Shown here: piece by piece, positions 46,835-62,058 of the stretch
Position numbering within the stretch: the first letter of the stretch is position 1
How the letters are laid out: each line of letters begins with the position of its first letter
Assembly (NCBI RefSeq): GCF_000172795.2
Contig: NZ_CP020948.1
Location: 1-64,000, forward strand
From: Rhizobium sp. CIAT894
GTDB taxonomy: Bacteria > Pseudomonadota > Alphaproteobacteria > Rhizobiales > Rhizobiaceae
Direction of reading: 5' to 3'
Length of the DNA stretch: 64,000 bases
Translations under genes and position numbers: made by a program
Notes under the pieces: generated by a model
The model's input: the letters and a program-made list of their open reading frames with translations, nothing else
What the model was told of the DNA's origin: nothing
The model's database searches: none

Positions 46835-46854
46835 TTCCCAGTAGGAGCTCAGTT

Positions 46855-48381
46855 TTGTCGGTTGTACGAGACGATGATATTCTATTCAGCCATGTCAATA
46901 AGAACCGATCCTCGGCGGCCGTAACGGGTGCCTTCTGGTCGGCGATGAGCACGCTCATTCCGACAGTCCTCACCTTCGCAGTTTTCGTGGTGACGTCTCG
47001 AGTCCTCCAGCCTCAGGATTTCGGTCTTGTTGCGCTGGCATTCAGCATCGTGTCGTTTGCCGGCAGTTTTGGACCGACCGCATTTGGCGAAGCAATCATA
47101 CAGCGATCCGAAATAAGGCGAAGCCACCTCGATACGATATTTATGCTTTCGCTTGCCTTTTCATTCTTGGTCTATGGCGTTTTGTGTGTCGCCGCTTCGC
47201 CCATCGCGGCCTACGTGGGACATAAAGAAATCACGTCCCTTATCTACATCATGGGACTGAAGGTGTTCTTCGACTTCACGGCCGTCGTTCCGAATGCGAT
47301 CGTCAACAGGAAGATGTCATTCCACCTCGTCGCCGTCCGGACTGTTATCGCCACAATTACTTCTGGTTGTATTTGCCTTGTGTTGGTTCTCGCGGGTTTC
47401 GGCTTGTGGGCGCTTGCGATTGCCCAGATCGCAGCCACAGCGGCATCATGCGGCGCTGCTTTCTGGGGCGCAGGGTGGTCGCCCGGGCTTCACGTGAAGA
47501 GAGAAAGTCTGAACGACCTGCTGCATTACGGGTTTTTTGCATCCGGCACTCGGTTCTTGCAAACGATGAGCTTGGACAATTTGATCATCGGCGTGCTCCT
47601 GAGCCCGTCAGCGCTCGGTATCTATAATTTCTCGAAGCGTTTGTTCGATATGATCAACAACGTCATCGCCGGGGGCTTAACATCGGTCACCCACGTCTTG
47701 CTGTCCTCGTTGCGGACCGATCCGAAGAAAGTTCGAGAAGCATTTTTGATGGCGACGTTTGGCTGCGCCCTGGTTTCCTACCCCGTCTTCATCGGCCTTG
47801 CCGCAGTTGCCGGTGATGCGATCACGACAATTTTCGGTGCGCATTGGATCGAGGCCGTTTGGCCGGTTCGGTTCTACTGCGTTATCGGGTTGATGGCTGG
47901 GATCGGCTACGTGCAGGCATCCTTGATCAAGAGCCAGGGGGAGATGGATTGGTGGTTCTACTACCAGTTGGCACGAAATCTCCTCACGCTCGTGACGATC
48001 GCAGTTCTTTATCCTTTCGGCGTCACAATAGTTGTTTTCGCGATTATGATCGAAGTTCTGTTGTTTTGGCCGATCACCAGCTGGAAGGTTTCGCGCCATA
48101 TAGAGCTGAGTGTCGGGGCCTATCTGATGCAGTTTCTTCGGCCCAGCATGGCTTGTGCAGGAATGGTCGCTGTGGTTTTGCTCCTGCATGAATCGCTCAT
48201 TCATTGGTCCCCCTATCCACGTCTGGCCGTGGAAATCGTTGCCGGCGGAATTGCATATTGCTGCCTGATCTTTGTTCTGTGCAGATCTCATCTCAATGTC
48301 TTGATCGGCAGCATAAAGCAGGTACGACAGCGCAAAACCAACAGGGACGAGCTTGTCGACCCTGTGGCACATCAATCGTGA
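46855..48381 (+). CDS. Polysaccharide flippase, Wzx/MOP family
   Basis: A 508-residue membrane protein with about 12-14 helices that moves lipid-linked oligosaccharide across the inner membrane (ExoT/WzxC-like). Family segments are AVTGAFWSAMSTLIPTVLTFAVFVVTSRVLQPQDFGLVALA, GPTAFGEAIIQR, FDFTAVVPNAIVNRKM and DNLIIGVLLSPSALGIYNFSKRL. The best start is the TTG at 46855, with AGGAG 7 bp upstream; an in-frame TTG at 46831 lacks one. It is cotranscribed with the pyruvyl transferase. A strong hairpin follows. Confidence 0.86.
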   Translation: MSVVRDDDILFSHVNKNRSSAAVTGAFWSAMSTLIPTVLTFAVFVVTSRVLQPQDFGLVALAFSIVSFAGSFGPTAFGEAIIQRSEIRRSHLDTIFMLSLAFSFLVYGVLCVAASPIAAYVGHKEITSLIYIMGLKVFFDFTAVVPNAIVNRKMSFHLVAVRTVIATITSGCICLVLVLAGFGLWALAIAQIAATAASCGAAFWGAGWSPGLHVKRESLNDLLHYGFFASGTRFLQTMSLDNLIIGVLLSPSALGIYNFSKRLFDMINNVIAGGLTSVTHVLLSSLRTDPKKVREAFLMATFGCALVSYPVFIGLAAVAGDAITTIFGAHWIEAVWPVRFYCVIGLMAGIGYVQASLIKSQGEMDWWFYYQLARNLLTLVTIAVLYPFGVTIVVFAIMIEVLLFWPITSWKVSRHIELSVGAYLMQFLRPSMACAGMVAVVLLLHESLIHWSPYPRLAVEIVAGGIAYCCLIFVLCRSHLNVLIGSIKQVRQRKTNRDELVDPVAHQS

Positions 48382-48387
48382 TATCGG

Positions 48388-48420
48388 GGCACCTCCGCAG
48401 ACCAGCCTTGCGGAGGTGCC
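48388..48420 (+). terminator. Strong hairpin after the flippase gene
   Basis: GGCACCTCCGCA (48388-48399) and TGCGGAGGTGCC (48409-48420) pair over 12 bp with a 9-base loop, starting 7 bp after the flippase stop. No T tract follows, so it may be a Rho-linked or processing hairpin rather than a classical terminator. Confidence 0.55.
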
Positions 48421-48510
48421 ACTGATGCGCAAAGTGGTCGGCACGGATGTCAGTTTCAATCCACCGCATCTGACCGCCGCTCAGGCACAAGCGAATAGGA
48501 TATCGATCAG

Positions 48511-49602
48511 ATGACCAGTCTCGACCGCGGTTATTCGCCATCGACGATTGACGCCGCGGAAGTCTGGATTCCCGACCGCAGCCGTTACTATTCCCTGGAT
48601 GCAATGCGCGGCTTTGCCGCGATCTGTGTCGTCGCCACACATTTCCAGGAACGATATGCCCCGTCGGCCTATCTGGCGGTCGACTTTTTCTTCGTACTCA
48701 GCGGGTTTATTATCGCCGAGATTTATGGAAAACGGCTTGCACGTGGCCTGCCGTTCCCGGCGTTCATGGCGGCTCGAATCAAGCGCCTTTATCCGCTTTA
48801 TTTGATCGGAATTTTGGTCGGTCTCGTACAGATCATATTGTTAACAGGCTGGGGCCTGAGACATCAGAGCGTCATTGACCTGTTGGCGTCGACCGTTGCC
48901 AACGGGATTTTTCTGCCCAGCCCGATGTATTTCCTTCAAACCAACCCAATGCAGGGTATGTTTCCAATCAATGGCCCGGCATGGTCGATGTTCTGGGAAC
49001 TGTTGGTAAACATAGTCTTCGCGCTATGGCTCTTCCGGCTCTCTGTCCGTGCCCTTTGCCTCGTCGCTTTGGTTTCAGCTGCGCTTTTGGCCTTTGCGGG
49101 TCTTAAGTACGGTATGTTGAATATCGGCTGGGAATGGCCTTCCGCAATAGGTGGTCTCCCAAGGGTCATGTTTTCATTTACTGCAGGGGTCGTGATCAGC
49201 CGTCTATTCGGTGGCATGCCGGCCTGGAGGAAGGGTTGGACGGCGATCCTGCCGTGCCTTCTTCTGATGATTTTCATGGCCGCGCCGGTTCCTTCCCTCC
49301 TGCGGCCCTACTACGATCTGATGTTTGCGATGGCCCTGGCGCCGCTCATCGTGATGCTTGGCCTCTTTCTGGAGATGCCTGCAAAAGCCGAGAGGTTGGC
49401 GACGTGGGTGGGATATATCTCCTACCCCGTCTACATTCTGCACCGCGGTGTGATCGGTGTTTTCAAGCCAGTCGCCGGGTCGATCGGATTGAGCGGCCCT
49501 CTCGCTTTTTTCGTGCTTCTCAGCGCGGTCGTGTGTTTCGCTTACGGAACGGCTCGTCTCGTAGACAAAACAATGACCATGCGGGCTCGGCCAGCTCGAT
49601 AA
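48511..49602 (+). CDS. Acyltransferase 3 family membrane protein (OafA/ExoH/ExoZ-like)
   Basis: A 363-residue integral membrane acyltransferase with about ten helices. The N-terminal motif LDAMRGFAAICVVATHF carries the catalytic-type His and Arg, and AVDFFFVLSGFIIAEIYGKR is the second hallmark. The C-terminal segment YISYPVYILHRGVI also fits. The family adds acetyl or succinyl groups to surface sugars. It is 129 bp after the flippase on the same strand and most likely decorates the same polysaccharide. It converges with pdxA2 (22 bp). Confidence 0.87.
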   Translation: MTSLDRGYSPSTIDAAEVWIPDRSRYYSLDAMRGFAAICVVATHFQERYAPSAYLAVDFFFVLSGFIIAEIYGKRLARGLPFPAFMAARIKRLYPLYLIGILVGLVQIILLTGWGLRHQSVIDLLASTVANGIFLPSPMYFLQTNPMQGMFPINGPAWSMFWELLVNIVFALWLFRLSVRALCLVALVSAALLAFAGLKYGMLNIGWEWPSAIGGLPRVMFSFTAGVVISRLFGGMPAWRKGWTAILPCLLLMIFMAAPVPSLLRPYYDLMFAMALAPLIVMLGLFLEMPAKAERLATWVGYISYPVYILHRGVIGVFKPVAGSIGLSGPLAFFVLLSAVVCFAYGTARLVDKTMTMRARPAR

Positions 49603-49624: not shown

Positions 49625-50614
49625 TTATGCGCTCTGCCGCGGCGAGCGGGCCATCAGCCGGGCATAGGCGATGGCCGACAGCATGTTGACGTGGTTGGCT
49701 TTGCCGGTGCCGGCAATGTCGAAGGCGGTGCCGTGATCGACCGAGACGCGGTCGATCGGCAGGCCGAGCGAGACGTTGACCGCCGTCTCGAAGGCGACGA
49801 GCTTGATCGGGATGTGGCCCTGATCGTGATACTGAGCGATGACGAGATCGAAGGCGCCGTTATAGGCGCGGGCGAAGACCGTATCGGCCGAAATCGGTCC
49901 GACGACGTCGATGCCGCTGGCCTGCGCCTGTTCGACGGCGGGTGCCAGGAATTCCATGTCCTCGGTGCCGAACAGGCCGTTTTCGCCGCAATGCGGATTG
50001 AGGCCGGCAACGGCGATGCGCGCCTTCTTGCCGAGCCGCAGGAAGTGCCGGTGGCCGGCCTCGATGGTGGCGAGAACCCGCTCCGTCCTCGCGCGCTCGA
50101 TCGCCCCCTTCAGCGAGATATGGGTGGAAACATGGATGGTGTTCAGCCGCTCGGAGGCAAGCAGCATGAAGGAACTCTTCGAGCCGGTGAGATGGGCGAG
50201 AAGCCCGGTATGGCCGTCATGGTGATGGCCGGCAAGGTTCATCGCTTCCTTGTTGATCGGCGCAGTGACGATGACATCGGCTTGCCCTGACATGGCGAGG
50301 TCGACGGCGCGGGTGATATAGCGCACCGAGGCATCGCCGGCGACCGGGCTGACCTTGCCGATTTCGGGCAGGGCCGCACTGAGTGCGACTTCATCTACGG
50401 CGATCCTGTCATCGCCGGCGGCATCGGCAGGCCCGAATTTCAGCCCGGCGCCGGTGGCGCGCTCGGCGCGCTCCAGCGCTTCGACATTGCCGACGATGAC
50501 GAAGTCGCGGCGCTCTTCGCTCGGAAGAGCCGCCAGGGCCTTGACGATTACCTCGGGGCCGACGCCGGCGGGATCACCGAGCGTGACGGCGACTTTCGCA
50601 TTCCTGTCCATCAT
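49625..50614 (-). CDS. pdxA2: PdxA-family 4-phospho-acid dehydrogenase (PdxA2 type)
   Basis: A 329-residue PdxA-family enzyme. Motifs are [68 protein letters not shown] and [15 protein letters not shown], which hold the three metal-binding His residues. In vitamin B6 synthesis PdxA oxidises 4-phosphohydroxy-threonine. In acid-sugar catabolism PdxA2 oxidises and decarboxylates 4-phospho-threonate or -erythronate to dihydroxyacetone phosphate. The second role is favoured because a DUF1537 kinase is in the same locus. The ATG at 50614 follows AAGGGA. It is 27 bp after the alcohol dehydrogenase gene, in one operon. Confidence 0.85.
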
Positions 50615-50641
50615 CAAAGTCCCTTCTGAAAACTATGCCGC

Positions 50642-51775
50642 CTAGAAGGCGGCTGCGTAAATCGAGCGAATGTCGGCGCGTGTGAGGTCGCGCGGATTGT
50701 TGTCGAGCAGGCGGCGGATGGCAAAAGCATCGTCGGCCATGGCGTCGAGATCGCTTTCCGGCACGCCGAGCCCTGACAGTTTCATCTCGATGCCGAGTTC
50801 GGCGCAGAAAGCATAGGCCGCATCGAAGACGGAGGCCGTGTCTTCCGAGGTTCGACGCCCAAGCGCTTCCATCACCGCTTTCGTCTTCTCAGGCGCAGAC
50901 GGGGTGTTGAAGGCGAGAACATGCGGGAAGATCAGCGCATTCGCAGCGCCATGCGCCACATGCCAGCGCGTGCCGAGCGGATAGGCGAGCGCATGGCCGC
51001 CGGCAGTGTTGACCGGACCGAGGCAGAAGCCGCCGTAGAGCGAGGCGAGCGACAGGCCGGCGCGCGCTTCGGCATCGTTGCCATCCTTGACGGCGCGGGC
51101 GAGATATTTGCCGACCAGCCGCGTTCCCTCGATCGCGTAGATATCGACCATCGGATGGGCCTTGCGGTTGGTGAAGGCCTCGACGCAATGGGCCATCGCG
51201 TCGACGCCGGTGGCGGCGGTGGTGCGTGCCGGCACGGTGAAGGTCAGGGCCGGATCGATGACGGCGATGTCGGCCAGCATGTGCAGGCTTTCGACCGCGA
51301 GCTTGGCCATCGTCCTGGGATCGGTGACGAGGGCGCGGATGCCGGCTTCGCTGCCGGTGCCCGATGTCGTCGGCACCTGGGCGAGTGCTGCCTTGCGCGG
51401 CCCATGCACCTTGTTCGGGCCGACGACGTCTTGCAGCGTCTGCGCGGAGCCGGCAAGAACGGCGGCGAGCTTTGCCAGGTCCATAGCGCTGCCGCCGCCG
51501 AAGCCGACGATCAGCTCGGCGTCGGCGCCGTTGGCCGCCGAGAGCACCTTTTCGAGGTTTGCCGTATCCGGCTCCGGCGTCACTTCGGCAAAGACCGTCA
51601 CCTCGCCCCTCAATTCCAACGTGTCGACGCGCGAGGCGTTGAAAGCATCGGAGATGACAAGCGTGCGCCTATAGCCCTTTTCGGCAGCCCATTTGCCGAG
51701 CTTTGCCGCCGTGCCGATGCCGAATTCGATCAGATGCGGCCGAACGATCGTGATTGGCGAATCCAAGCTGGCCAT
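50642..51775 (-). CDS. Iron-containing alcohol dehydrogenase (maleylacetate-reductase-like)
   Basis: A 377-residue group III metal-dependent dehydrogenase. NAD binding: GFGGGSAMDLAK (residues 91-102) and VPTTSGTGSEA. Metal ligands are in GVDAMAHCVEAF and in GHALAYPLGTRWHVAHGAANALIFPH. These give the Asp and three His of the family. ATG 51775 has GCAGGAGGA upstream. A promoter-like TTGACA-N15-TACAAT lies 48-74 bp upstream. It probably oxidises or reduces a hydroxy-acid intermediate in this locus; the substrate is unknown. Confidence 0.86.
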   Translation of the reverse strand: MASLDSPITIVRPHLIEFGIGTAAKLGKWAAEKGYRRTLVISDAFNASRVDTLELRGEVTVFAEVTPEPDTANLEKVLSAANGADAELIVGFGGGSAMDLAKLAAVLAGSAQTLQDVVGPNKVHGPRKAALAQVPTTSGTGSEAGIRALVTDPRTMAKLAVESLHMLADIAVIDPALTFTVPARTTAATGVDAMAHCVEAFTNRKAHPMVDIYAIEGTRLVGKYLARAVKDGNDAEARAGLSLASLYGGFCLGPVNTAGGHALAYPLGTRWHVAHGAANALIFPHVLAFNTPSAPEKTKAVMEALGRRTSEDTASVFDAAYAFCAELGIEMKLSGLGVPESDLDAMADDAFAIRRLLDNNPRDLTRADIRSIYAAAF

Positions 51776-51822
51776 GAACCAGTCCTCCTGCAAGATCTTG
51801 CGGCGATAGTGTCACTCCATTT

Positions 51823-51849
51823 ATTGTAAAGTTGTAAGATCAATGTCAA
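51823..51849 (-). promoter_or_regulatory. Candidate promoter for the dehydrogenase-pdxA2 unit
   Basis: On the minus strand TTGACA (51849-51844) and TACAAT (51828-51823) are 15 bp apart. The TTTACAATAA around the -10 also occurs in the promoter of the divergent peptide-type ABC operon at 54439-54448. Confidence 0.45.
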
Positions 51850-52061
51850 GCTGACAATCCAGGTCGGCGGGAATTTTATCGCCGAGCATGCCGCAGAACA
51901 GGCCTCAGGCGCTTGCTGTGTACCAATATATTATTTAAAATCAAGTGCTTATAATATGTATGGATGAAGCGGTCAGTTAAAAGGTCAGCCGCCATCATGT
52001 CGGCGGCGGGGAGGCCAAACCTGTTGTCAAATCCTCGGCGTGACCGGCCGATCTGCCTGTG

Positions 52062-52083
52062 TCCCGCATCGTCTCATGCGGGA
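52062..52083 (-). terminator. Hairpin downstream of the sialidase-fold gene
   Basis: TCCCGCAT (52062-52069) pairs with ATGCGGGA (52076-52083) with a 6-base loop, 39 bp past the stop of the gene at 52122-53309. It probably ends that transcript. The remaining 51850-52061 shows nothing coding and is partly AT-rich. Confidence 0.5.
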
Positions 52084-52121
52084 TCGGAAAGCAGATTTAC
52101 AATTCCAGGCCGGCATCTTGC

Positions 52122-53309
52122 TTACGGCAGCGCTTGCGGGGCGAGTCGCACATATTTGATGGCGCGCCGGTAATAGGTGTAGGCGACATGGAGCGTGCCG
52201 TCGCTGCCCTGGATGACCGAGGGATAGGAGAATTCACGGTTCAGCGAATCCTTGGAATTGTTGCTGAGACAGAAGCCGTCGCCTGTATCGAGATCCATGC
52301 GATGCGGAAAGGTCCTGCCGCCATCCCTCGAAATCGCCAGGCTGAGCGGCGCACGCGGCACACCCCAGACCGCCTTGCGGCCGGTATCGGCAACAACAAC
52401 AGTGGACTCTCCAGCCTCGTCACCCTCGATTTCGTCGTAGAGAGACTGACGCCGCGCATCCGACATATCAGCATTCGAATGGTTGTAAACCATTGCGATT
52501 GCTGCATCATTTAACATGGTGGCCTGGATCGAGGAATTGTTGTTCGGCAGTTCGGTCGGCTTGGGCGGGCTCCACGTCTCGCCGCCGTCGGACGATCGGC
52601 TGAAAAGAATGTTTTCGGCGAAGCGGTTGCGGTAGAAGGCGATCATCTCGCCGCCGCCGAGCGGCAGGATATTCATGTGGACGGCGCCGATGCTGTCGGG
52701 AATATCGTGCATCTGCCAGCTCGCGCCGCGATCGCGCGAGATCAGCACCGCTGCCGTATCGGCATTACCGCTCCAGCGCTGACCGTCGAGGCCGACGCAA
52801 CGGAAGATCGGAAGCAGCCAGTCGCCCCTGCCGTTGACGACGATCTGCTGACGAACGAAAGTGCCGGGGCTGTCGCAGAGGACCCGGACCGGGCCGAATG
52901 TCTTGCCGCCGTCATCCGATATCCGGCATTTGACAATCGAGCCATCCTGGTTGCCTGAGGTCTGCGATGTGTAGAGCAGCCATGTCTTTCTGTCCGGGGC
53001 GTTGAATATCAACGGGTTCTGCTCGGATTTCTTCGGATCGTCGCTCATCTTTTCCGGTTCCGACCAGCGCTCGGCGCCCGGCGCCAGCCGCGACATGTAA
53101 ATCGAAATGTCGCCCATGCCCTCCATCGTGCCGCCGAACCAGACGCAGCTCAGCGTGCCGTCGGGCAGAAAGGCGAGATTGGCTGCATGGTTCTGGATGC
53201 AGGGTGAGGGCAGGTAGGCATCGGCGCGGCCTGCGACAGAGGGGTGAGGGGTGACGCTCCCGGTCATCAAAGCGGAGACGGCTTCGGGAGCCAGGCCGGT
53301 AAATGTCAT
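52122..53309 (-). CDS. Sialidase-fold (BNR/Asp-box) protein, cytoplasmic
   Basis: A 395-residue six-bladed beta-propeller protein of the BNR_2/exo-sialidase group. Four Asp boxes of the form SxDxGxTW/F are visible: SDDGGKTF, SRDRGASW, SSDGGETW and SRDGGRTF. Near the N-terminus IQNHAANLAFLPDGTLSCVWFGGTMEG and near the C-terminus NREFSYPSVIQGSDGTLHVAYTYYRRAIKYVRL are typical of the group. There is no signal peptide, so it would act on an imported compound. GGAG precedes ATG 53309. It lies 11 bp after the aldolase gene in one operon. True sialidase activity is not implied; many relatives are uncharacterised glycosidases or lyases. Confidence 0.82.
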   Translation of the reverse strand: MTFTGLAPEAVSALMTGSVTPHPSVAGRADAYLPSPCIQNHAANLAFLPDGTLSCVWFGGTMEGMGDISIYMSRLAPGAERWSEPEKMSDDPKKSEQNPLIFNAPDRKTWLLYTSQTSGNQDGSIVKCRISDDGGKTFGPVRVLCDSPGTFVRQQIVVNGRGDWLLPIFRCVGLDGQRWSGNADTAAVLISRDRGASWQMHDIPDSIGAVHMNILPLGGGEMIAFYRNRFAENILFSRSSDGGETWSPPKPTELPNNNSSIQATMLNDAAIAMVYNHSNADMSDARRQSLYDEIEGDEAGESTVVVADTGRKAVWGVPRAPLSLAISRDGGRTFPHRMDLDTGDGFCLSNNSKDSLNREFSYPSVIQGSDGTLHVAYTYYRRAIKYVRLAPQALP

Positions 53310-53320
53310 GGCGGATCTCC

Positions 53321-54223
53321 TCAAGGCAGTTTGGCGTAGCTATCGGCGAGCGCGGCAGAGTCGACCTCGCTCAGCGGCATCAGCGGCGCGCGGGTGCGCT
53401 TCCAGGCGGGATTGCCTGTCTTCAGCCCGATCATTGCCTTGATGGTCGGGATCTGGACGTAGGAATTGGAAAGAGTGCGATAGGCATTGATGCGTGCCTG
53501 CGCCGTCTCGACATCGGCGCTGCGCGCCTCGTCATGAACATGGTCGTAAATGGTCCGCAGCGAATCCGCCACGAGATTGGAAGTGGCCGTGATGCAGCCG
53601 GCGCCGCCGGCCTTCATGAGCGGCAGCAGCAGCGGATCGGCGCCCGCCAGCACCGAAAAGCCGGGATGGGCGGCGATGATGGCCTGCATGTTATTGAAAT
53701 CGCCGGCAGATTCCTTGATTCCAACGACGGTTTCCGGGAAGGCCGCAATCAGCCGGCCGATCAGCGGAATGGAGAGCGGCACGCCCGAGACCTGCGGAAT
53801 GTGATAGAGGATGACCTGCAGGCGGGTGTCGGCGACCTTTTCCAGAACCTGCGAATAGGCGGCAAACAGGCCGTCGTCGGAGACGCCCTTGTAATAGAAA
53901 GGCGGCAGCATCACCACCTTGGTGACGCCGAGCGATAGGGCGTGCCGCGTCAGTTCCACGGTCTCCGGAATGGCGACGACGCCAGTGCCCGGCAAAAGCT
54001 TGTCGGCCGGAATGCCGGCCTTCACCGCCGCCTCCAATATGGCGCGGCGCTCGGCTCCGGAGAAGGAATTGGCTTCTCCGGTCGTGCCGAGCAGGGCCAC
54101 GCCATGACAGCCCTCGGCCAGCAGTCGCCGGCAGTGGTCGGTGAAAAGGGTGAGGTCGGGCGTATTGTCTGCCGTCAGCGGCGTTGCGGCCGCGCTGAAA
54201 ACGCCTGTAATCCTGTGGCTCAT
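53321..54223 (-). CDS. Dihydrodipicolinate synthase family aldolase
   Basis: A 300-residue (beta/alpha)8 lyase of the DapA/NanA superfamily. The GTTGE loop is at 46-50, catalytic Y140 in LYHIP and Schiff-base K170 in GIKESAGD. The family includes dihydrodipicolinate synthase, N-acetylneuraminate lyase and 2-keto-3-deoxy-acid aldolases; all cleave or form a bond next to a 2-keto acid such as pyruvate. ATG 54223 (MSHRITGVF) is the conserved start. It is the first gene of the minus arm, next to a sialidase-fold gene, so a catabolic aldolase is more likely than lysine synthesis. Confidence 0.87.
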   Translation of the reverse strand: MSHRITGVFSAAATPLTADNTPDLTLFTDHCRRLLAEGCHGVALLGTTGEANSFSGAERRAILEAAVKAGIPADKLLPGTGVVAIPETVELTRHALSLGVTKVVMLPPFYYKGVSDDGLFAAYSQVLEKVADTRLQVILYHIPQVSGVPLSIPLIGRLIAAFPETVVGIKESAGDFNNMQAIIAAHPGFSVLAGADPLLLPLMKAGGAGCITATSNLVADSLRTIYDHVHDEARSADVETAQARINAYRTLSNSYVQIPTIKAMIGLKTGNPAWKRTRAPLMPLSEVDSAALADSYAKLP

Positions 54224-54319
54224 TCCGCCCTCCTCGGTGCGTCCCGTCTTTTCCGGCTGCACGGGCAATTGTCATTCGTCTGTCGCGATGGATTGCGAAA
54301 AACTTTTCCATTGCAGTTC

Positions 54320-54338
54320 TTTTGTCAAGAAGACAAAA
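54320..54338. promoter_or_regulatory. Palindromic operator, candidate GntR site
   Basis: TTTTGTC (54320-54326) and GACAAAA (54332-54338) form a perfect 7-bp inverted repeat around AAGAA, between the divergent aldolase and ABC operons. The TTGTC..GACAA core fits FCD-type GntR operators, and a GntR gene ends the plus arm. Confidence 0.6.
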
Positions 54339-54400
54339 TGCGTTCATTCCTGATGGAAAAATTATCTAATTGTTATTGCTGTGATATTTTTCGTTATAAA

Positions 54401-54446
54401 TTTTGTTGCGACAAAAATTGCGATTTTTTGTTGACATATTTACAAT
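54401..54446 (+). promoter_or_regulatory. Promoter of the peptide-type ABC operon with second palindrome
   Basis: TTTTGT-TGCG-ACAAAA (54401-54416) is a second dyad related to the one at 54320. It is followed directly by TTGCGA (54418-54423) and TACAAT (54441-54446), 17 bp apart, a plausible -35/-10 pair for the binding-protein gene at 54529. Confidence 0.5.
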
Positions 54447-54528
54447 AACGAGAGAACGATAGGCGACGGATTGTGCTGCGCCTGGCAGTGCAGGGAGAGC
54501 GCTGCCGATTTCACCTGGGAGGAATGCC

Positions 54529-56166
54529 ATGTCTCTTGATCAATCTGACAAAACCAATTTATCGCGTCGCAATGCATTGAAGCTCGGCCTCGCCGCCGGT
54601 GTCGGCCTTACCGTGTTCGGGATGAATGCCCGCATCGTGATGGCCGATGACGGCCAGGTCCTGAAGGTCGCCCATCCGGCCTTCGACCAGGACTGGTCGC
54701 CGCTGCGCGGCGGCGGCAGAACGTTCCGCTGGAATTCGATCTGGTGGGCGTCGCCGATGTATTTCGACAGCCAGGGCAATATCAAGCCCTACGTCTTCGC
54801 AAGCTGGGAATCGGCCGACAACACGGTGTGGACTTTCAAGATCGATCCCAAGGCCGTCTTCTCGGACGGCAGCAAGATCACCTCGGCCGATGTCAAGGGA
54901 TCGTGGGAAGTTGCCTCGATGCCGAACACCAAGAGCCAGCGCGCCGACCAGGTGCTGAGCAAGGTCAAGGGCTATGCCGAAATCGCCGCCGGCTCCGGCA
55001 ACGAGCTGACGGGTGTGGCGACTCCTGATGAGGGGACAGTCGTGGTGACGCTCGCCGCTGCCGATCCGATCTTCTTCATGCGCCTGGCAAACCACATCGC
55101 GCCGATCACCAAAGCGTCGCAATCGCGCGGCAGCGACGGCGAGGAAATCATCGACTGGTATAAGCCCGAAAACAAGCCGGTCTTCTCCGGCCCCTTCAAG
55201 CTGACGAGCATCGATATCGATGCCGGCAAGATCACCTTCGAGCCGAATGAAAACTTCTTTGGGCAGAAGCCGAAGCTTGCCCGCATCGACATCACCTCGA
55301 TCGAGGACAATGTCACCGCGACGTCGCTGATCAAATCCGGCGAGTTCAACGCCCATACCGAGCTCGTCACCTCGACGATCATCCAGGATCTCGGCCCGGA
55401 ATTCTCGGCCGGCCCGCTGATCCCGACCAGCCAGCACTTCTGGTTCAACATCTCCCGTGCGCCGATGGACGATCCGAAGGTCCGCCAGGCGCTGATCATG
55501 GCGGTCGATCGCGACGGCCTGTTCAAGGCCTCCTATCCCGATGGGCCGCACAAGAAGGCCGATCAGATCCTCAATTCGGTTCCCGGCGCCGACAATTCCG
55601 GCTTCGAGCCCTTTCCCTATGATCCGGCAGCCGCCAAGAAGCTGCTTGCCGAATCGAGCTATGGCGGGCCCGAGCGCCTGCCGAAAATCCTGTTCGTCGG
55701 CATTTCGGCGCCGGCCATCCAGGCCGCCGCCCAGTTCATCGCCGAGCAGTGGCGCCAGAATCTCGGCATCACGGCCGTCGACATGAAACCGCAGCAGGAC
55801 GCCTATGCCGGTCCGGATCAGAACTCGGTCCAGATCTTCCGCGACGACGTCGGCACCCGTGTTCCCGACGCCGTTTCCTATCTGGCGGGCAGCATCGCCT
55901 CGACCTCGTCGAACGCGCAGAACAAGCTCGGCGGATACAAGAACGACAAGGTCGACAGCGCCCTTGCCGAAGCGGCGACCAAGGCTGCGGACGATCCGCA
56001 GCGCATCTCCCTCGCCCAGGCAGCCCAGAAGGCGTTCCGCGAGGATTGGGCCTTCATCCCATGGTATTCTCAGGCGATGTCGCGCTGGGCCACCAAGGAG
56101 GTCAAGGGCATGGAGAAGAACCTCGACTGGCAGATCGCCGAACCCTGGAACATTTCCATCGGCTGA
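54529..56166 (+). CDS. Peptide-type ABC transporter binding protein (SBP family 5), Tat-exported
   Basis: A 545-residue DppA/OppA-like periplasmic protein. LSRRNALKLGLAAGVGLTVFG is a twin-arginine signal with cleavage near VMA-DDG. The mature protein has WESADNTVWTFKIDPKAVFSDGSKITSADVKGSW, the family-5 signature, and DDPKVRQALIMAVDRDGLF. Family 5 proteins bind peptides, but also glycosides and opines. It heads an operon with two permeases, two ATPases, a kinase and a GntR regulator. The context points to a sugar-acid conjugate rather than a peptide. Confidence 0.9.
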   Translation: MSLDQSDKTNLSRRNALKLGLAAGVGLTVFGMNARIVMADDGQVLKVAHPAFDQDWSPLRGGGRTFRWNSIWWASPMYFDSQGNIKPYVFASWESADNTVWTFKIDPKAVFSDGSKITSADVKGSWEVASMPNTKSQRADQVLSKVKGYAEIAAGSGNELTGVATPDEGTVVVTLAAADPIFFMRLANHIAPITKASQSRGSDGEEIIDWYKPENKPVFSGPFKLTSIDIDAGKITFEPNENFFGQKPKLARIDITSIEDNVTATSLIKSGEFNAHTELVTSTIIQDLGPEFSAGPLIPTSQHFWFNISRAPMDDPKVRQALIMAVDRDGLFKASYPDGPHKKADQILNSVPGADNSGFEPFPYDPAAAKKLLAESSYGGPERLPKILFVGISAPAIQAAAQFIAEQWRQNLGITAVDMKPQQDAYAGPDQNSVQIFRDDVGTRVPDAVSYLAGSIASTSSNAQNKLGGYKNDKVDSALAEAATKAADDPQRISLAQAAQKAFREDWAFIPWYSQAMSRWATKEVKGMEKNLDWQIAEPWNISIG

Positions 56167-56296
56167 TTGGGCCTATCGTTTCTGGCAATGAGCGCGCGAG
56201 GGCCGCAAGGCCTTCGCGCAAGTTTCAAGAAGAGATGCGATCCGCCGGGCTTCTGCAAAGGGCGGGAACGCATCGAACAACAGGTGGGAGGTGGCC

Positions 56297-57253
56297 TTGC
56301 TGCGCTACGTGCTAACCCGGTTCGCCATCTGGATTCCATCCGTTCTGGTGGTGATGCTGGCGGTCTACGCGCTGGCCTTTTATGGCGCCGGCGATCCGAT
56401 CAAGCTGATCTTCCTGCGCGCGCCAGGCGATGTCGCCTATAATCCGCAGCGCATCGAAGCCATCCGCGAAAGCGCCGGCCTCAACAGGCCCTTCATCGAG
56501 CAGTTCGGCCTTTACATCTGGAACCTGCTGCACGGCCAGTTCGGCAATTCGTTGACCTCCGGCCGCGCCGTCTGGGCGATGGTCTCGGCTGCCGCCCCGG
56601 TCTCCTTCCAGCTTGCCCTCTGTGCCATCATCCTGACGGCCCTCGTCGCAATCCCCCTCGGCATGATCGCTGCGCTGAACCAGAATTCGCGCCTCGACTA
56701 CGCCATTCTGGGCTCGGCGCTTTTCCTCTGGGCGATCCCGGCCTATGTCGCAGGTCCCTTGCTGATGGTCGGCCTGATCGTGCTCTTGCCGGGCGCAAGC
56801 GTGCCCTATGGCTGGGGCGGTGTCTTCGATGTCCGCATCCTGCTGCCGCTGCTCGTGCTTTCCTTCCAGCCGATCGCGCTGATCGTGCGCCAGACCCGCG
56901 CCGCCGTCATCGAGGTGCTGTCGGAGGATTTCGTCCGCACCGCCCGCGCCAAGGGCGTGCCCGAGATTATCGTGGCGCTGCGCCATATCCTGCGGCCGGT
57001 GCTGACGCCTGTGGTGACCCAGCTCGGCCTGATCATGATCACCATCGTCAACGGCGCGATCTTCGTCGAGCTCGTCTTCGGCCTGCCGGGTCTCGGCCGG
57101 CTGACGGTGCAGGCGCTGATCAATTCCGATTATCCCGTCATCCTGGCAATCACGCTGATCGGATCGTTCCTGGTGATGGTGTCGAACCTCCTGGTGGACG
57201 TGCTCTATCCGCTGCTCGATCCGCGCGCCAACGATTCAAGAAGGAGCCGCTGA
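56297..57253 (+). CDS. ABC transporter permease, DppB/OppB family
   Basis: A 318-residue permease with six helices and the DppB N-terminus LRYVLTRFAIWIPSVLVVM. A large periplasmic loop follows (APGDVAYNPQRIEAIRESAGLNRPFIEQFG), then the ATPase-docking RTARAKGVPEIIVALRHILRPVLTPVV. GGGAGG at 56286-56291 best fits the TTG at 56297 as start; a GTG at 56291 overlaps it. Substrate channel with the next gene. Confidence 0.88.
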   Translation: MLRYVLTRFAIWIPSVLVVMLAVYALAFYGAGDPIKLIFLRAPGDVAYNPQRIEAIRESAGLNRPFIEQFGLYIWNLLHGQFGNSLTSGRAVWAMVSAAAPVSFQLALCAIILTALVAIPLGMIAALNQNSRLDYAILGSALFLWAIPAYVAGPLLMVGLIVLLPGASVPYGWGGVFDVRILLPLLVLSFQPIALIVRQTRAAVIEVLSEDFVRTARAKGVPEIIVALRHILRPVLTPVVTQLGLIMITIVNGAIFVELVFGLPGLGRLTVQALINSDYPVILAITLIGSFLVMVSNLLVDVLYPLLDPRANDSRRSR

Positions 57254-57255
57254 CC

Positions 57256-58215
57256 ATGTCCGCAATCCCTCTTTCTACCACCGAGACCATCGAGGAGCCG
57301 CCGGTCAGCCTGTGGCGCGACGCCTGGCACCGGCTGAAACGCAACAAGCTCGCCGTCTTCGGCCTCATCGTCGTCCTGATCCTCGCCTTCACGGCGATCT
57401 TCGGGCCTTACCTCACGCCCTATGATTATCTCAGCCAGGATCTCAACGCCCGCAACGCACTGCCGTCGATGAGCCATCTCTTCGGAACCGACGACCTCGG
57501 CCGCGATGTCTTCAGCCGCGTCGTCTTCGGCACGCGGACCGCCTTCCTCGTCGCCGTCATCGTCACCTTCTTCGCCGTGTTGATCGGCCTCACGCTCGGC
57601 GCGGTCGCCGGTTTCTTCGGCAATCCCTTCGACCGCGCCATCATGTGGCTGACCGACGTGACGATGTCGGTTCCCAACCTGCTGCTCGTCGTCGTCATCA
57701 ACGCTTCGCTGAAATCGCCGATCACCCGCTGGATGGAGGCGCGCTACCTCGAGACCCTCAATCCCTTCTACCGCCAGACGATATGGGTGGATTTCATCCT
57801 CGTCTTCGGGTCGATGGCGCTGATCTCCTGGCCGCCCTATGCCCGTCTCGTGCGCGCCCAGGTTCTGTCGATCCGCAGCCGGCCCTATATCACCGCCGCC
57901 CAAGCGCTCGGGCTGTCGAACTGGGTCATCATCAAGCGGTATGTCGTGCCGAATGCGCTCGGGCCGCTCATCGTTTCGGTCAGCGCCGGTCTCGGCACGG
58001 CGATGGTGCTGGAAAGCGCCTTCAGCTTCCTCGGGGTCGGGGTCAATCCGCCGACGCCGAGCTGGGGCAACATGATCTCGGACGGCCTTCGCGTCTGGCA
58101 GCATTATCCGCATCTTCTCGCCGCTCCGGCGGCCGTGCTCGGCCTTGCCTCGGTTGCCTTCAGCTTCCTCGGCGACGGCCTCAACGACGCGCTCAATCCG
58201 CGGGGCAACAAATGA
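57256..58215 (+). CDS. ABC transporter permease, DppC/OppC family
   Basis: A 319-residue permease. The N-terminal OppC domain is [39 protein letters not shown], followed by [27 protein letters not shown] and [22 protein letters not shown]. An insert near residues 155-180 ([22 protein letters not shown]) lengthens a loop compared with E. coli DppC. Its TGA overlaps the ATG of the ATPase gene. Confidence 0.9.
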
Positions 58216-59219
58216 TGGACACGAAAAGCACAGAACGCCTGCTCGATGTCAGGGGCCTTACCGTCGAGATCGATGGCCGCAACGGCCCGGCCGTCGTCGT
58301 CGACGGCATCGATCTCCATGTCGACAAGGGCGAGACGCTGGGTGTTGTCGGTGAATCCGGCTGCGGCAAGAGCCTCACCATGCTGAGCCTGATGCGGCTC
58401 TTGCCGAACAAGATCAAGGTCGCCAAGGGAACGGCCACCTTCGCCGGCCGCGACCTGCAGACGATGTCGAATGCCGAACTGCGCAAGGTGCGCGGCGGCG
58501 ATATCGGCTTCGTCTTCCAGGATCCGATGACCTCGCTCAATCCGGTCATGCGCGTCGGCGACCAGATCTGCGAGCCGCTGATCTATCATCGAAAAATGAA
58601 AAAGGCCGAGGCCCGCATCCGGGCCGTCGAGCTTCTGCGGCTCGTCGGCATTCCCGGCCCGGAAGAGCGGTTGCAAGCCTTTCCACACGAGCTCTCAGGC
58701 GGCATGCGCCAGCGCGTCATGATCGCCATCGGCCTTGCCTGTAACCCGAAGCTCCTGATCGCCGACGAGCCGACCACGGCGCTCGACGTCACCATCCAGG
58801 CCCAGATCGTCGATCTGGTGAAGGATCTGCGCGCCAAGCTCGGCATGTCAGTCGTCTGGATCACCCATGATCTGGCGCTGATCGCCGGCCTGGTCGACCG
58901 CGTCGCCGTGCTCTATGCCGGCACGGTCGTCGAGGATGCGCCGGTCGACGAGCTTTATGCCCGCCCGAGCCATCCCTATACGCGCGGCCTGCTTTCCTCG
59001 ATCCCGAAACTTTCCGATCCGCCGGCAAGCCGGCTCTCTTCGATCGGCGGCACGCCGCCGGAGCCCGGCCGCCGGCCGAAGGGCTGCCCGTTTGCGCCGC
59101 GCTGCCCGCTCGTTGAGGCGATCTGTCACGAGAAGGTGCCGCGGCTCGAATCCTTGAGCGGCAGCAGCAATCACCGCGCCGCCTGTTTCGTCGTCCAGAG
59201 AATGCAGGAGGCCGCGTGA
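58212..59219 (+). CDS. ABC transporter ATPase, DppD/OppD family
   Basis: A 335-residue ATPase. Walker [10 protein letters not shown]-loop [12 protein letters not shown], signature LSGGMRQR, Walker [13 protein letters not shown], switch His in WITHDL. The C-terminal extension holds the Cys-rich [20 protein letters not shown], which in this family binds an iron-sulphur cluster. The ATG at 58212 overlaps the previous stop. Confidence 0.92.
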
Positions 59220-60211
59220 TGGCTGCGCAACCGCTGCTCAAGGTCGAAAACCTGGTCAAGCATTTCCACGTCAAGCTCGGGGCTTTCGGCGAACGCTCGG
59301 CGACCGTCTATGCCCTCGACAATGTCGATCTCGACATCATGGAAGGCGAGACGCTGAGCCTCGTCGGTGAATCCGGCTGCGGCAAATCGACGACCGGCTT
59401 CACCATCCTCAATCTCTACAAGGCGACCAGTGGCAGGGTCGTTTACAAGGGACAGGACCTCGCTACACTCGACGAGAAGCAGATGCGGCCCTTCCGCCGC
59501 GACCTGCAGATCGTCTTCCAGGATCCCTATTCGACGCTCAATCCGCGTATGACGGTAGGCGAGGCGATCGGCGAGCCGATCCTCTTTCACAAGCTTTGCA
59601 CCAAGGCCGAGCTGAAAGACAAGGTCGCGGCGTTGTTGACCGATGTCGGCCTGCCCACCCGGTTTGCCCAGCGCTACCCGCACGAACTCTCAGGCGGCCA
59701 GCGCCAGCGCGTCGTCATCGCCCGGGCGCTCGCCTGCCAGCCGAAATTCATCGTCTGCGACGAGGCGATCTCGGCGCTCGACGTGTCGATCCAGGCGCAG
59801 ATCATCAACCTGCTGCTCGATCTGCAGGAGAAATACGGGCTGACCTATCTGTTCATCGCCCATGACCTCGCGGTGGTGCGCCATATCAGCACCCGCGTCG
59901 GTGTGATGTATCTCGGGCGCCTCGCCGAGCTTGCGACCCGCGAGGAGCTCTTCGACAATCCGCTGCATCCCTATACGAGAGCGCTGCTCTCGGCTGTTCC
60001 GGAGACGGATCCGGAGCACGAGCGCACCCGCCAGCGCCAGATCCTGCAGGGTGACGTGCCGAGCCCGCTGAACCCGCCGTCGGGCTGCCGTTTCCACACG
60101 CGCTGCCCGATCGCGATGGACGTCTGCAGCAAGGTTATTCCCGCCTGGAAGGAAGCGAGACCCGGCCATCTCGTCGCCTGCCACGCTGTCAATACAGAGC
60201 AGATCGCATGA
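59219..60211 (+). CDS. ABC transporter ATPase, DppF/OppF family
   Basis: A 330-residue partner ATPase. Walker [54 protein letters not shown] (Ala replaces the usual Pro of DEP, as is common in this family), switch His [12 protein letters not shown] and the C-terminal [20 protein letters not shown]ys cluster. The start ATG shares a base with the TGA of the previous gene, and its own TGA overlaps the kinase ATG. Confidence 0.92.
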
Positions 60212-61269
60212 CATTGAAGGCCGCCATTATCGCCGACGATCTGACGGGCGCACTCGATACCGGTACGCCCTTCATTGCGGCTGGCCTTTCGGTTGCGGTC
60301 GCCGTCGACGTCGGGGCGGCGCAGGATGCGATCGCAACCGGCTGCGATGTCGTCGTCGTCAACACCGCTTCGCGCGCGCTTGGCAAACGCGAAGCCGTCG
60401 AAACGGTCCGTGCGGCGACGGAAGTGCTTCGCGGCGAGAAGCCGTTGGTGGTGATGAAGAAGATCGATTCCCGGCTGAAGGGCAATGTCGCGGCGGAAAG
60501 CCTGGCGCTCGCCGAGGCGCTCGGCCTGAAAACCATCCTGGTGGCGCCCGCCATTCCCGATCAGGAACGCGTGACCTACCGGGGCTGCGTCGTCGGGCGC
60601 GGGGTTCCCAAGCCATTGCCGATCGCCGACCTATTCGGGCGCGGTGGCGATAATGTTGTCGTTGCCGATGCGGAAAACGATCTTGACCTCGACCAGATCA
60701 TCGACGGTCATGACTGGACGAGGACCCTTGCGGTCGGTGCGCGTGGCCTCGGCGCGGCAATTGCCCGCCGGCTTGGCGAAGCGGGGCAGCCGGCGATGGA
60801 GTTCGCGGCAAGCCCGCGGACGCTGTTTGCCTTCGGCTCTCGCGACCCGATCACCGTCGTCCAGATGAACCGGCTCGAAGCCTCGGGTGCCCTGCGCATG
60901 GTGGTGGATGCTCCGATCGGCGAGATCGGATGCGGGGAGGGGCTGGCACTGCCGGTCTTGCTGCGCTGCACCGGCGACATGACGGCTGACGCGGGCCTCG
61001 TCGCCCACCGCTTCGCGGCAGGCGTCAAAGCGGTCATCGATGATACGAGGCCCGATATGCTGATGGTCGGCGGCGGCGATACCGCCCTTGCCGTGTTTCA
61101 GGCGCTTGGCGTCAGGGTACTGGTGCCGAAGGGCGAGATCGAGGCCGGTATTCCATGGTTCGATGTCATGGCCGGCGACGGGCGGCAATTTCGGTGTGCT
61201 GTCAAGTCGGGGGGCTTCGGCCATCCCGATAGTTTGCTAAGACTGGTTTCTCGGAATCAGGCGGCATAG
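60208..61269 (+). CDS. DUF1537 four-carbon acid sugar kinase family protein
   Basis: A 353-residue kinase of the OtnK/DtnK family. The acid-sugar site ADDLTGA is at residues 9-15, MKKIDSRLKGN is the conserved KxDSxxxGN element, and VGGGDTA near the C-terminus contributes to ATP binding. Known members phosphorylate D- or L-threonate, D-erythronate or 3-oxo-tetronate at C4. At 353 residues it is shorter than the usual 410-430, mainly in the middle. It overlaps the last ABC ATPase gene. Its product would be the substrate of the PdxA-type enzyme in the minus arm. Confidence 0.87.
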   Translation: MTLKAAIIADDLTGALDTGTPFIAAGLSVAVAVDVGAAQDAIATGCDVVVVNTASRALGKREAVETVRAATEVLRGEKPLVVMKKIDSRLKGNVAAESLALAEALGLKTILVAPAIPDQERVTYRGCVVGRGVPKPLPIADLFGRGGDNVVVADAENDLDLDQIIDGHDWTRTLAVGARGLGAAIARRLGEAGQPAMEFAASPRTLFAFGSRDPITVVQMNRLEASGALRMVVDAPIGEIGCGEGLALPVLLRCTGDMTADAGLVAHRFAAGVKAVIDDTRPDMLMVGGGDTALAVFQALGVRVLVPKGEIEAGIPWFDVMAGDGRQFRCAVKSGGFGHPDSLLRLVSRNQAA

Positions 61270-61293
61270 TACAATACCGTCGGGGAGAATGAC

Positions 61294-62058
61294 GTGGTTG
61301 AAGTGAATGGCGAATCTTTGAACGCGGAAGCCGGCCCGGCGGGCAAGCCCGAACGCGGCAAGGCCGTCAAGCTGGTCGATCGCGTCTTCGACCAACTGCT
61401 CGAGCGGATTCGCGGCGGAAATTATCCGCCGGATTCACGCCTTCCCGGCGAACATGAACTTGCCTCGATGCTGGGTGTTTCCCGGCCGATCGTCCGCGAT
61501 GCGCTGGCCCGCCTGCGCGATCAGGGCATGGTCTATGCACGGCAGGGCGCCGGCACCTTCGTCAGCGCGCATGGGTCGCCGACGACGCAGCTTGCCTATT
61601 CGCCGGTCAAGACGATTGCCGACATTCAGCGCTGCTACGAATTCCGCCTGACCATCGAGCCGGCCGCCGCCTATTTTGCCGCCAAACGCCGCAATGAGCA
61701 GGCGATCCAGAAGATCGCCAGCGCCCTTGCCGATCTGCGTGAAGCGACCAGCCATCAGCTTCACCGCACCGATGCCGATTTCATCTTCCACCGGGCGGTG
61801 ACGGAGGCTGCCAACAATCATTATTACACGGCCTCGATCGATGCGCTGAAAGCCCATATCGCCGTCGGCATGCATCTTCACGGCCTCTCCCTGCTCGGCC
61901 CGCGCCAGGGGCTTGAACAGGTTTATGAAGAGCATAACGCCATCTATAAAGCGATCGCCGATGGCCGGGCCGACGATGCGCAAAGGCTGATGAAGGCGCA
62001 TCTGGAAGGCTCACGCGACCGTCTGTTCGAGGGCAGGGTGCTCGACCTGTCCTTCTGA
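61294..62058 (+). CDS. GntR (FCD) regulator of the acid-sugar locus
   Basis: A 254-residue FadR-type regulator. After a 25-residue tail the winged helix reads VFDQLLERIRGGNYPPDSRL, then ELASMLGVSRPIVRDALARLRDQG; the FCD domain has DADFIFHRAVTEAANN and HNAIYKAI with the metal-type His/Asp residues. The start is a GTG with GGGGAG 6 bp upstream. It closes the plus arm and probably binds the TTTTGTC-N5-GACAAAA site between the two arms. The effector is unknown. Confidence 0.88.
   Translation: MVEVNGESLNAEAGPAGKPERGKAVKLVDRVFDQLLERIRGGNYPPDSRLPGEHELASMLGVSRPIVRDALARLRDQGMVYARQGAGTFVSAHGSPTTQLAYSPVKTIADIQRCYEFRLTIEPAAAYFAAKRRNEQAIQKIASALADLREATSHQLHRTDADFIFHRAVTEAANNHYYTASIDALKAHIAVGMHLHGLSLLGPRQGLEQVYEEHNAIYKAIADGRADDAQRLMKAHLEGSRDRLFEGRVLDLSF

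What the first reader, a model, noticed from the sequence alone, without database searches (positions are those of the whole stretch)
49625..62058. Two-armed locus that may be a new catabolic pathway for a C4-acid-sugar conjugate
Sequence shows a divergent locus. The minus arm is DHDPS-family aldolase, cytoplasmic sialidase-fold protein, Fe-alcohol dehydrogenase and PdxA family. The plus arm is a Tat-exported family-5 binding protein, DppBCDF-like importer, DUF1537 kinase and GntR. Established: DUF1537 kinase plus PdxA2 convert threonate or erythronate to dihydroxyacetone phosphate. Inference: the extra Asp-box protein, aldolase and dehydrogenase process a larger imported compound that releases a C4 acid sugar, and the peptide-type importer brings it in. 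I know of no described pathway with this exact set.
Basis: partly seen in the sequence, partly recalled or inferred. Interest (0 to 1): 0.75.

Follow-up and report, generated by a model that had tools for sequence, protein, structure and literature searches.

The report
Plant sugar-acid eating operon in rhizobia
Root-nodule bacteria and many relatives share a conserved gene cluster that most likely breaks down an unusual seven-carbon sugar acid, perhaps one from plant cell walls, by a pathway that we did not find described.

Summary
In detail: 11 intact genes form two divergent arms (49625-62058). All 11 occur together in 72 of 126 fetched BNR loci. The roles recur in other gene orders in Azospirillum, Neoroseomonas and an enteric-like family, where aldolase, kinase, PdxA and importer come from other subfamilies: roles kept, genes swapped.

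Two results sharpen the reading. (1) In the enteric-like operon, kinase (8 of 8 tested) and PdxA (9 of 9 tested) pass NCBIfam's D-threonate cut-offs, and a YhcH-family (neuraminate-anomerase-like) gene joins. The window's own genes do not pass. (2) Fifteen loci with Fe-ADH and aldolase but no BNR carry a D-2-hydroxyacid dehydrogenase (12) or a FAD oxidase (3). So the sialidase-fold protein and a 2-hydroxyacid oxidase look like alternative entries to one 2-keto-3-deoxy acid. The aldolase would split it into pyruvate and a C4 aldehyde, reduced to a C4 sugar acid for kinase and PdxA.

[quoted passage not shown] its cleavage and reduction would give D-threonate. This identity is inference.

The parts
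49625..50617 (-). PdxA family, predicted 4-phospho-C4-sugar-acid dehydrogenase (last step, to DHAP + CO2)
   Evidence: PF04166 E 7e-96; passes TIGR00557 pdxA cut-off (342 vs 290) but not D-threonate 4-phosphate dehydrogenase (305 vs 583)
50642..51793 (-). Iron-containing alcohol dehydrogenase, predicted reductase of the C4 aldehyde from the aldolase
   Evidence: PF00465/PF25137; no equivalog cut-off met; not found and an SDR present instead in L008, L011, L015
52122..53324 (-). Cytoplasmic BNR_2 protein with sialidase fold, predicted to act on an ulosonic-acid-like substrate (entry step)
53321..54268 (-). DHDPS-family class I aldolase, predicted to cut a 2-keto-3-deoxy acid into pyruvate and an aldehyde
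   Evidence: PF00701 E 1e-45; Lys185 and Tyr155 in conserved motifs (roles recalled); no dapA or nanA cut-off met
54320..54338 (.). Inverted repeat TTTTGTCAAGAAGACAAAA in the divergent intergenic region, possible GntR operator
   Evidence: a repeat of this type in 42 of 74 intergenic regions (window included) against 62 of 1480 mononucleotide shuffles
54431..54444 (+). Conserved TTGACATATTTACA element, promoter/operator-like, before the binding-protein gene
   Evidence: 10-mer GACATATTTA in 63 of 74 intergenic regions
54529..56166 (+). Family-5 solute-binding protein with twin-arginine signal motif
   Evidence: PF00496 E 2e-60; no peptide or nickel equivalog cut-off met
56291..57253 (+). ABC importer permease (DppB/OppB-like)
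   Evidence: PF00528
57256..58215 (+). ABC importer permease (DppC/OppC-like)
   Evidence: PF00528, PF12911
58209..59219 (+). ABC importer ATPase (DppD/OppD-like)
   Evidence: PF00005, PF08352
59216..60211 (+). ABC importer ATPase (DppF/OppF-like)
   Evidence: best NCBIfam OppF, below its cut-off
60208..61269 (+). Short DUF1537 kinase (353 aa), predicted C4-sugar-acid kinase
   Evidence: PF07005 and PF17042; best NCBIfam D-threonate kinase 134.9 bits, below cut-off 450; AlphaFold pLDDT 90.1, the eight Foldseek matches with E <= 0.001 are DUF1537-family chains
61294..62058 (+). GntR/FCD regulator of the locus (predicted)
   Evidence: PF00392, PF07729; travels with the locus

Best explanation
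The locus is a catabolic operon pair for a C7 2-keto-3-deoxy sugar acid, or a simple derivative of it. The Dpp-type importer brings the compound in. The cytoplasmic sialidase-fold protein frees or opens the ulosonic acid. The DHDPS-family aldolase splits it into pyruvate and a C4 aldehyde acid. The Fe-ADH (elsewhere an SDR) reduces that to a C4 aldonate, most likely D-threonate. The DUF1537 kinase and PdxA turn it into dihydroxyacetone phosphate and CO2. GntR controls both arms. Shown here: genes, conservation, role-preserving swaps, alternative entry modules, sialidase fold. [quoted passage not shown] Separate odds: aldolase, then reductase, then C4 kinase, then PdxA about 0.65; C7 diacid about 0.45; Dha about 0.3.
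For: (1) All four roles (aldolase, Fe-ADH or SDR, kinase, PdxA) lie within 10.5 kb of BNR in 15 of 31 order-sample loci, 75 of 80 named-genome loci and 14 of 15 phylum/enteric-like loci. (2) Swaps, identity to the window protein: aldolase 54-97% in one class against 25-30% in the other, PdxA 59-98% against 43-47%, Fe-ADH 54-97% against 30-40%, short against about 420-aa kinase, Fe-ADH against SDR, several importer types. (3) Enteric-like kinases pass the D-threonate kinase cut-off (450) in 8 of 8 BNR loci tested (493-615 bits) and PdxA passes the D-threonate 4-phosphate dehydrogenase cut-off (583) in 9 of 9 (666-682); so do both in the one BNR-less locus tested, L137. YhcH (PF04074) lies between BNR and SDR there. 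YhcH opens cyclic Neu5Ac and also stimulates cleavage of KDN, a 2-keto-3-deoxy acid (PMC8141875, passages). (4) Entry swap: 15 loci with Fe-ADH and aldolase but no BNR carry 2HADH (12) or a FAD oxidase (3). (5) 10 of 12 class II or related aldolase rows keep an Arg where three DapA-type chains have one; in DapA it is recalled to bind the carboxylate of a C4 aldehyde acid. (6) Worked by hand: retro-aldol of D-lyxo-heptulosarate gives D-threuronate, and its reduction gives D-threonate, matching (3).
Against: The window's own kinase and PdxA miss the D-threonate cut-offs by far (134.9 of 450; 305 of 583); so do the kinase of Azospirillum L104 (111) and both enzymes of L118 (181; 339). The window's class I aldolase lacks the Arg (0 of 11 class I rows), and so does its closest solved relative 3b4u. 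No natural source of the 2-hydroxy acid implied by the 2HADH branch is known to me. A FAH-family hydratase beside BNR in several loci has no place in this scheme. In the loci that I read I noticed no rhamnogalacturonan-II glycosidase, but I did not scan for them. BNR resembles GH143, the known Dha hydrolase, only over a short stretch (5mqr, E 0.009). Six genomes carry both a BNR locus and a separate Fe-ADH of this type; in the four fetched (L144-L147) that second locus has its own 2HADH entry, so BNR there may serve something else. BNR was the search key for most loci, so its own constancy there is by construction.
Confidence: 0.5

Rival explanations
1. One reading: BNR hydrolyses an imported glycoside or conjugate, the C4 acid is one of the released parts, and aldolase and dehydrogenase deal with the other part.
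Against: Symporter, TRAP, TctC and NMT1-type importers in other BNR loci; loci without BNR keep the same aldolase and reductase (15 of 15) and kinase plus PdxA (12 of 15) with a 2-hydroxyacid oxidase.
Confidence: 0.2
2. BNR is not a hydrolase but an anomerase, lactonase or hydratase acting on the free ulosonic acid (NanM-like role), and all genomes import the free acid.
For: Small-acid importers; YhcH anomerase family next to BNR; invariant His216, and no Arg seen near the start where sialidases are recalled to have catalytic Glu and Arg (sialidase residues recalled).
Against: Enteric-like loci have YhcH as well as BNR, so BNR is not simply the anomerase; Tyr367 is invariant and by the end-point offset falls near the nucleophilic Tyr370 of the Micromonospora enzyme.
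Confidence: 0.2
3. Catabolism of sialic acid or another nonulosonic acid.
For: Sialidase fold, NanA-superfamily aldolase, YhcH in the enteric-like loci, regulator nearest NanR among NCBIfam models.
Against: nanA and NanR cut-offs not met by the window genes, anomerase cut-off not met by the two YhcH tested; does not explain DUF1537 kinase and PdxA. ManNAc kinase and epimerase were not searched for.
Confidence: 0.04
4. A plain D-threonate/D-erythronate or oligopeptide locus, with aldolase, BNR and Fe-ADH as chance neighbours, or a vitamin B6 repair locus (DUF1537 acting on 4-hydroxythreonine, as the review PMC10971088 reports for STM0162).
For: The kinase plus PdxA pair alone is enough for threonate (recalled); the window PdxA passes the generic pdxA cut-off.
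Against: Co-occurrence of BNR and Fe-ADH (28 of 297 genomes against 32 and 36 alone) and role-preserving swaps.
Confidence: 0.06

Closest known systems
DUF1537 kinase/PdxA2 pathways for D-threonate and D-erythronate (Zhang et al. 2016; seen only as cited in PMC10971088)
   Same: DUF1537 kinase and PdxA as the last two steps; enteric-like counterparts pass the D-threonate cut-offs
   Different: Aldolase, aldehyde reductase, sialidase-fold protein and Dpp-type importer upstream; window kinase is 353 aa and below the cut-off
Sialic acid (nan) catabolism
   Same: Logic of importer, sialidase-like or anomerase protein, and a NanA-superfamily aldolase giving pyruvate
   Different: Exit through a C4 acid kinase and PdxA; NanA cut-offs not met
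GH143 Dha hydrolase BT1020 of Bacteroides thetaiotaomicron (one passage in PMC6811678; gene name recalled)
   Different: Two-module enzyme, Dha site on a five-fold fold; ours is about 400 aa with a sialidase fold, no signal peptide seen, and only a short weak sequence match
Dpp/Opp family ABC importers
   Same: All five component families
   Different: No peptide-specific cut-off met; other importer classes in relatives

Membership tests
DUF1537 four-carbon acid sugar kinase | SBD_N and NBD_C domains | tested here: met
   PF07005 107.7 bits (cut-off 25), PF17042 52.8 bits (cut-off 28.3)
DUF1537 four-carbon acid sugar kinase | D-threonate kinase equivalog score (window gene) | tested here: not met
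   134.9 against 450
DUF1537 four-carbon acid sugar kinase | D-threonate kinase equivalog score (enteric-like counterparts) | tested here: met
   8 of 8 BNR loci tested plus L137; Azospirillum L104 and L118 not met; L119-L121 and L128 not tested
PdxA2 D-threonate-4-phosphate dehydrogenase | Equivalog score (window gene) | tested here: not met
   305 against 583; enteric-like counterparts met in 9 of 9 BNR loci tested plus L137, L118 not met
GH33 sialidase | Sialidase propeller fold | tested here: met
GH33 sialidase | Catalytic Tyr, Glu, Asp and three Arg | tested here: inconclusive
   Invariant Tyr367, Asp72, Arg232, Arg324 fit; His216 where Glu is expected; first Arg not seen. From, end offsets, and recalled sialidase residues; no residue-level structural alignment was available
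GH143 Dha hydrolase | Sequence or structural match to BT1020 | tested here: inconclusive
   Only 5mqr 282-328, E 0.009; not among the 50 rows shown, which does not exclude it
Sialic acid (nan) pathway | NanA equivalog score of the aldolase | tested here: not met
   107 against 281 (PRK04147) and 91 against 382 (TIGR00683)
Dipeptide/oligopeptide importer | DppA/OppA equivalog score of the binding protein | tested here: not met
   49.6 against 1005 and 106.9 against 947
Dha catabolic pathway | Enzyme activity on Dha | not testable with these tools
   -

The most novel reading that the evidence does not exclude
The locus is a bacterial catabolic pathway for Dha, the seven-carbon ulosaric acid that in plants is reported only from rhamnogalacturonan II. 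Dha is treated as a plant sialic acid (cytoplasmic sialidase-fold enzyme and, in enteric-like bacteria, a YhcH anomerase). A NanA-superfamily aldolase cuts it to pyruvate and D-threuronate, which is reduced to D-threonate and burned through DHAP. The same core serves a second, 2-hydroxy-acid precursor in other bacteria.
Probability: 0.3. Interest if true: 0.78.

Novelty: new variant of a known kind. Interest (0 to 1): 0.62.

Why it matters
It proposes roles and an order for a gene set found across rhizobia, Azospirillum and enteric-like bacteria, now labelled sialidase, dihydrodipicolinate synthase and PdxA. If the substrate is Dha, it would describe how microbes use one of the rarest plant cell-wall sugars, for which I found no catabolic route in the listings searched, and would supply enzymes for assaying Dha, for which a 2025 review notes missing standards (PMC12168206, passages). 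It also shows the C4-acid-sugar kinase/PdxA pair as a shared exit for several entry routes.

Tried and rejected
Considered and set aside: Neu5Ac catabolism (NanA cut-offs missed); plain threonate or peptide locus (conservation of the rest); ascorbate, isoapionate, Kdo and hexuronate routes (recalled pathways do not need this set; Kdo would give a C5 sugar); DHDPS as a dehydratase (would not explain kinase and PdxA). A classical GntR site TNGTNNNACNA was absent from the window's intergenic region and found in 1 of the 70 ortholog rows printed; a longer inverted repeat was found instead. Literature: searches gave no paper; one search gave one genome paper, not opened; searches gave no Dha catabolic pathway in the titles and abstract starts listed (25, 40 and 3 papers listed); one of the ten paper searches was not used. 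Papers opened, passages only: PMC8141875, PMC12168206, PMC6811678, PMC10971088, PMC10580937 (86, not used further). Zhang et al. 2016 is not held, so the established threonate route rests on citations in PMC10971088 and recall. ORFs in fetched loci were called by a simple codon-usage script that missed some genes, so role counts use tblastn.

Limits: the counts come from loci fetched with BNR, so BNR's constancy there is circular. The reciprocal search with Fe-ADH removes this: 8 of 36 Fe-ADH genomes in the order and 7 of 18 in the enteric-like family lack a BNR match. Rows L034-L103 were shortened to 'rhizobial type' in the print; their content is. Own genome G000 was left out of the 31 order-sample loci. 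L001 and L002 were not used. Only L118, L131 and L137 (2HADH) and L135 (FAD oxidase) were checked by Pfam; the other entry genes were assigned by tblastn. Importer classes were checked by Pfam or NCBIfam in one or two members each.


Full report
WHAT IS THERE. The window lies in a 6.66-Mb, six-contig genome, by its proteins a Rhizobium (BNR up to 92% to R. phaseoli plasmids; kinase 97% to R. chutanense). Between 49625 and 62058 there are 11 intact genes in two divergent arms: PdxA, Fe-ADH, BNR and DHDPS on the minus strand; binding protein, two permeases, two ATPases, short DUF1537 kinase and GntR on the plus strand. In R. etli CFN 42 the corresponding 11 genes are on plasmid p42b (RHE_RS22140-RS22190), annotated as exo-alpha-sialidase, dihydrodipicolinate synthase family protein, four-carbon acid sugar kinase and so on.

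CONSERVATION. A BNR search of 297 genomes of the order found 32 with a match. In 72 of 126 loci all 11 window genes are present at 45% identity or more, among them Rhizobium, Sinorhizobium/Ensifer, Neorhizobium, Pararhizobium, Aminobacter and Mesorhizobium. Those missing genes include contig ends and truly different arrangements.

ROLES KEPT, GENES SWAPPED. In other lineages the same roles are filled by different subfamilies. Azospirillum: kinase, PdxA, Fe-ADH, another DHDPS class, SSS symporter, BNR, FAH-family protein, SDR in one direction, with GntR in three of four loci. Enteric-like loci: DeoR, PdxA and a 411-448-aa kinase divergent from Fe-ADH, DHDPS class II, SSS, BNR, YhcH, SDR (YhcH in 13 of the 15 loci L114-L128; kinase lengths). 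L008, L011 and L015 have an SDR and no Fe-ADH match. L013/L014 have TctC and Liv-type binding proteins, L009/L012 an NMT1-type protein, L010 a TRAP binding protein plus SSS (families). L118 holds both entry modules. G112 holds SSS+BNR+SDR at one place (L017) and DHDPS, kinase, PdxA and Fe-ADH at another (L148). Bacillus glycinifermentans L107 and Pantoea piersonii L113 show only SSS, BNR, SDR (and YhcH in L113) in the stretch held. L025-L028, L030 and L031 hold importer, BNR, kinase and DHDPS, while the Fe-ADH lies elsewhere in the genome; in the four second loci fetched (L144-L147) it sits with TctC, DHDPS, 2HADH and PdxA. So there seem to be two modules: a core (aldolase, reductase, kinase, PdxA) and an entry module (BNR with importer, with or without SDR, YhcH, FAH).

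RECIPROCAL TEST. Searching with the window Fe-ADH found 36 of 297 genomes, 28 of them also with BNR; 4 genomes have BNR without this Fe-ADH and 8 the reverse. With the enteric-like Fe-ADH, 18 of 149 genomes matched; 11 of the 12 BNR genomes are among them. The 15 Fe-ADH loci without BNR (L129-L143) all have an aldolase, 12 have kinase and PdxA in the stretch (not L132, cut by a contig end, L142, L143), and all carry a D-2-hydroxyacid dehydrogenase (12) or a GlcD-like FAD oxidase (3), with TctC-type (8) or MFS galactonate-type (7) importers and no BNR match (families checked). Within genus g38, two sampled species have the FAD-oxidase version (L130, L133) and one the BNR version (L017, L148). 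Against strict exclusion: weaker 2HADH matches (38-41%) lie in 16 rhizobial BNR loci, a stronger one (59%) in L019, and L118 has both.

MECHANISM. An oxidase of 2-hydroxy acids that can stand in for BNR, feeding a pyruvate-Schiff-base aldolase, implies a 2-keto acid as the aldolase substrate. Kinase and PdxA imply a C4 aldonate: in the enteric-like operon the kinase passes the D-threonate cut-off in 8 of 8 BNR loci tested and PdxA in 9 of 9, and both pass in L137 with the 2HADH entry; L118 and the Azospirillum L104 kinase do not pass. Pyruvate plus C4 makes C7, and the Fe-ADH (or SDR) is the natural reductase of the C4 aldehyde. If the aldehyde already bears a carboxylate, no aldehyde oxidase is needed; I saw none inside the operons that I read but did not scan for one, and a frame that looks like an aldehyde dehydrogenase lies outside the operon in L127 and L140 (recognised by eye). 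Ten of 12 class II or related aldolases keep an Arg where three of the four synthase-labelled chains aligned have one, fitting a carboxylated aldehyde; the window's class I has V/I/M there (0 of 11 with Arg) and His instead of Asn after the catalytic Tyr in 10 of 11 rows. Of natural compounds known to me, Dha fits. Its D-lyxo centres (C4 left, C5 left, C6 right) give, after cleavage of C3-C4, an aldehyde with threo C5/C6, and reduction gives an acid that reads as D-threonate from the carboxyl end. This was worked by hand, not computed. Dha is described as structurally related to sialic acid and in plants found exclusively in rhamnogalacturonan II (PMC12168206, passages).

THE SHORT KINASE. The window kinase (353 aa) keeps the ADDLTGALDTG, KKIDSRLKGN, GSRDPIT, GGGDTA and KSGGFG stretches and folds like DUF1537 proteins (pLDDT 90.1; 5dmh TMq 0.77). 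It looks like a compact form, not a fragment.

REGULATION. The divergent intergenic region has an inverted repeat at 54320-54338, a similar one at 54401-54416 and a conserved promoter-like element at 54431-54444. A repeat of this type is in 42 of 74 intergenic regions, window included (shuffles 62 of 1480), and the 10-mer GACATATTTA in 63 of 74. Assignment to GntR is inference.

WHAT IS NOT SHOWN. No substrate was tested. Nothing in the genome data alone names Dha; a C7 acid not known to me would fit equally. The FAH protein and the source of the 2-hydroxy acid are unexplained. The distances of the window's own kinase, PdxA and aldolase from the enteric-like ones leave room for a different stereoisomer (for example D-erythronate) in rhizobia.

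VERDICT. Observation confirmed; interpretation partly supported and made sharper. A new variant of known C4-acid-sugar catabolism with a sialic-acid-like entry; interest 0.62.

Noticed in passing
45749-49602: Left flank carries what read as exopolysaccharide genes (by eye, no family search): a pyruvyl-transferase-like protein, a flippase-like membrane protein and an acyltransferase-like membrane protein.
   Followed up: no
L001 (G000:C6:477367-478041): A second DUF1537 kinase in the same genome, with a nearly full N-terminal domain match, 1-228 of 230.
   Followed up: no
L149:16823-25200: In R. etli CFN 42 p42b a glycerol gene set (glpK, glpD, sugar ABC importer) lies beside the locus; glycerol also enters through dihydroxyacetone phosphate.
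   Followed up: no
L005:5427-6392 and 15 other rhizobial loci: A 2-hydroxyacid dehydrogenase homologue (38-41% to the alpha-type entry gene) in BNR loci, next to PdxA in L005.
   Followed up: partly
L138:3235-4281, L142:15650-16696: Cyclase-family gene (PF04199 in L138; L142 by tblastn) and a second MFS-like transporter join the 2-hydroxyacid version of the enteric-like operon.
   Followed up: no
L104:11282-12067, L033:12343-13146: FAH-family protein resembling 2-keto-4-pentenoate hydratase beside BNR in Azospirillum and other loci; role unexplained.
   Followed up: partly
L128: The enteric-like operon looks decayed (short broken frames) in this genome.
   Followed up: no
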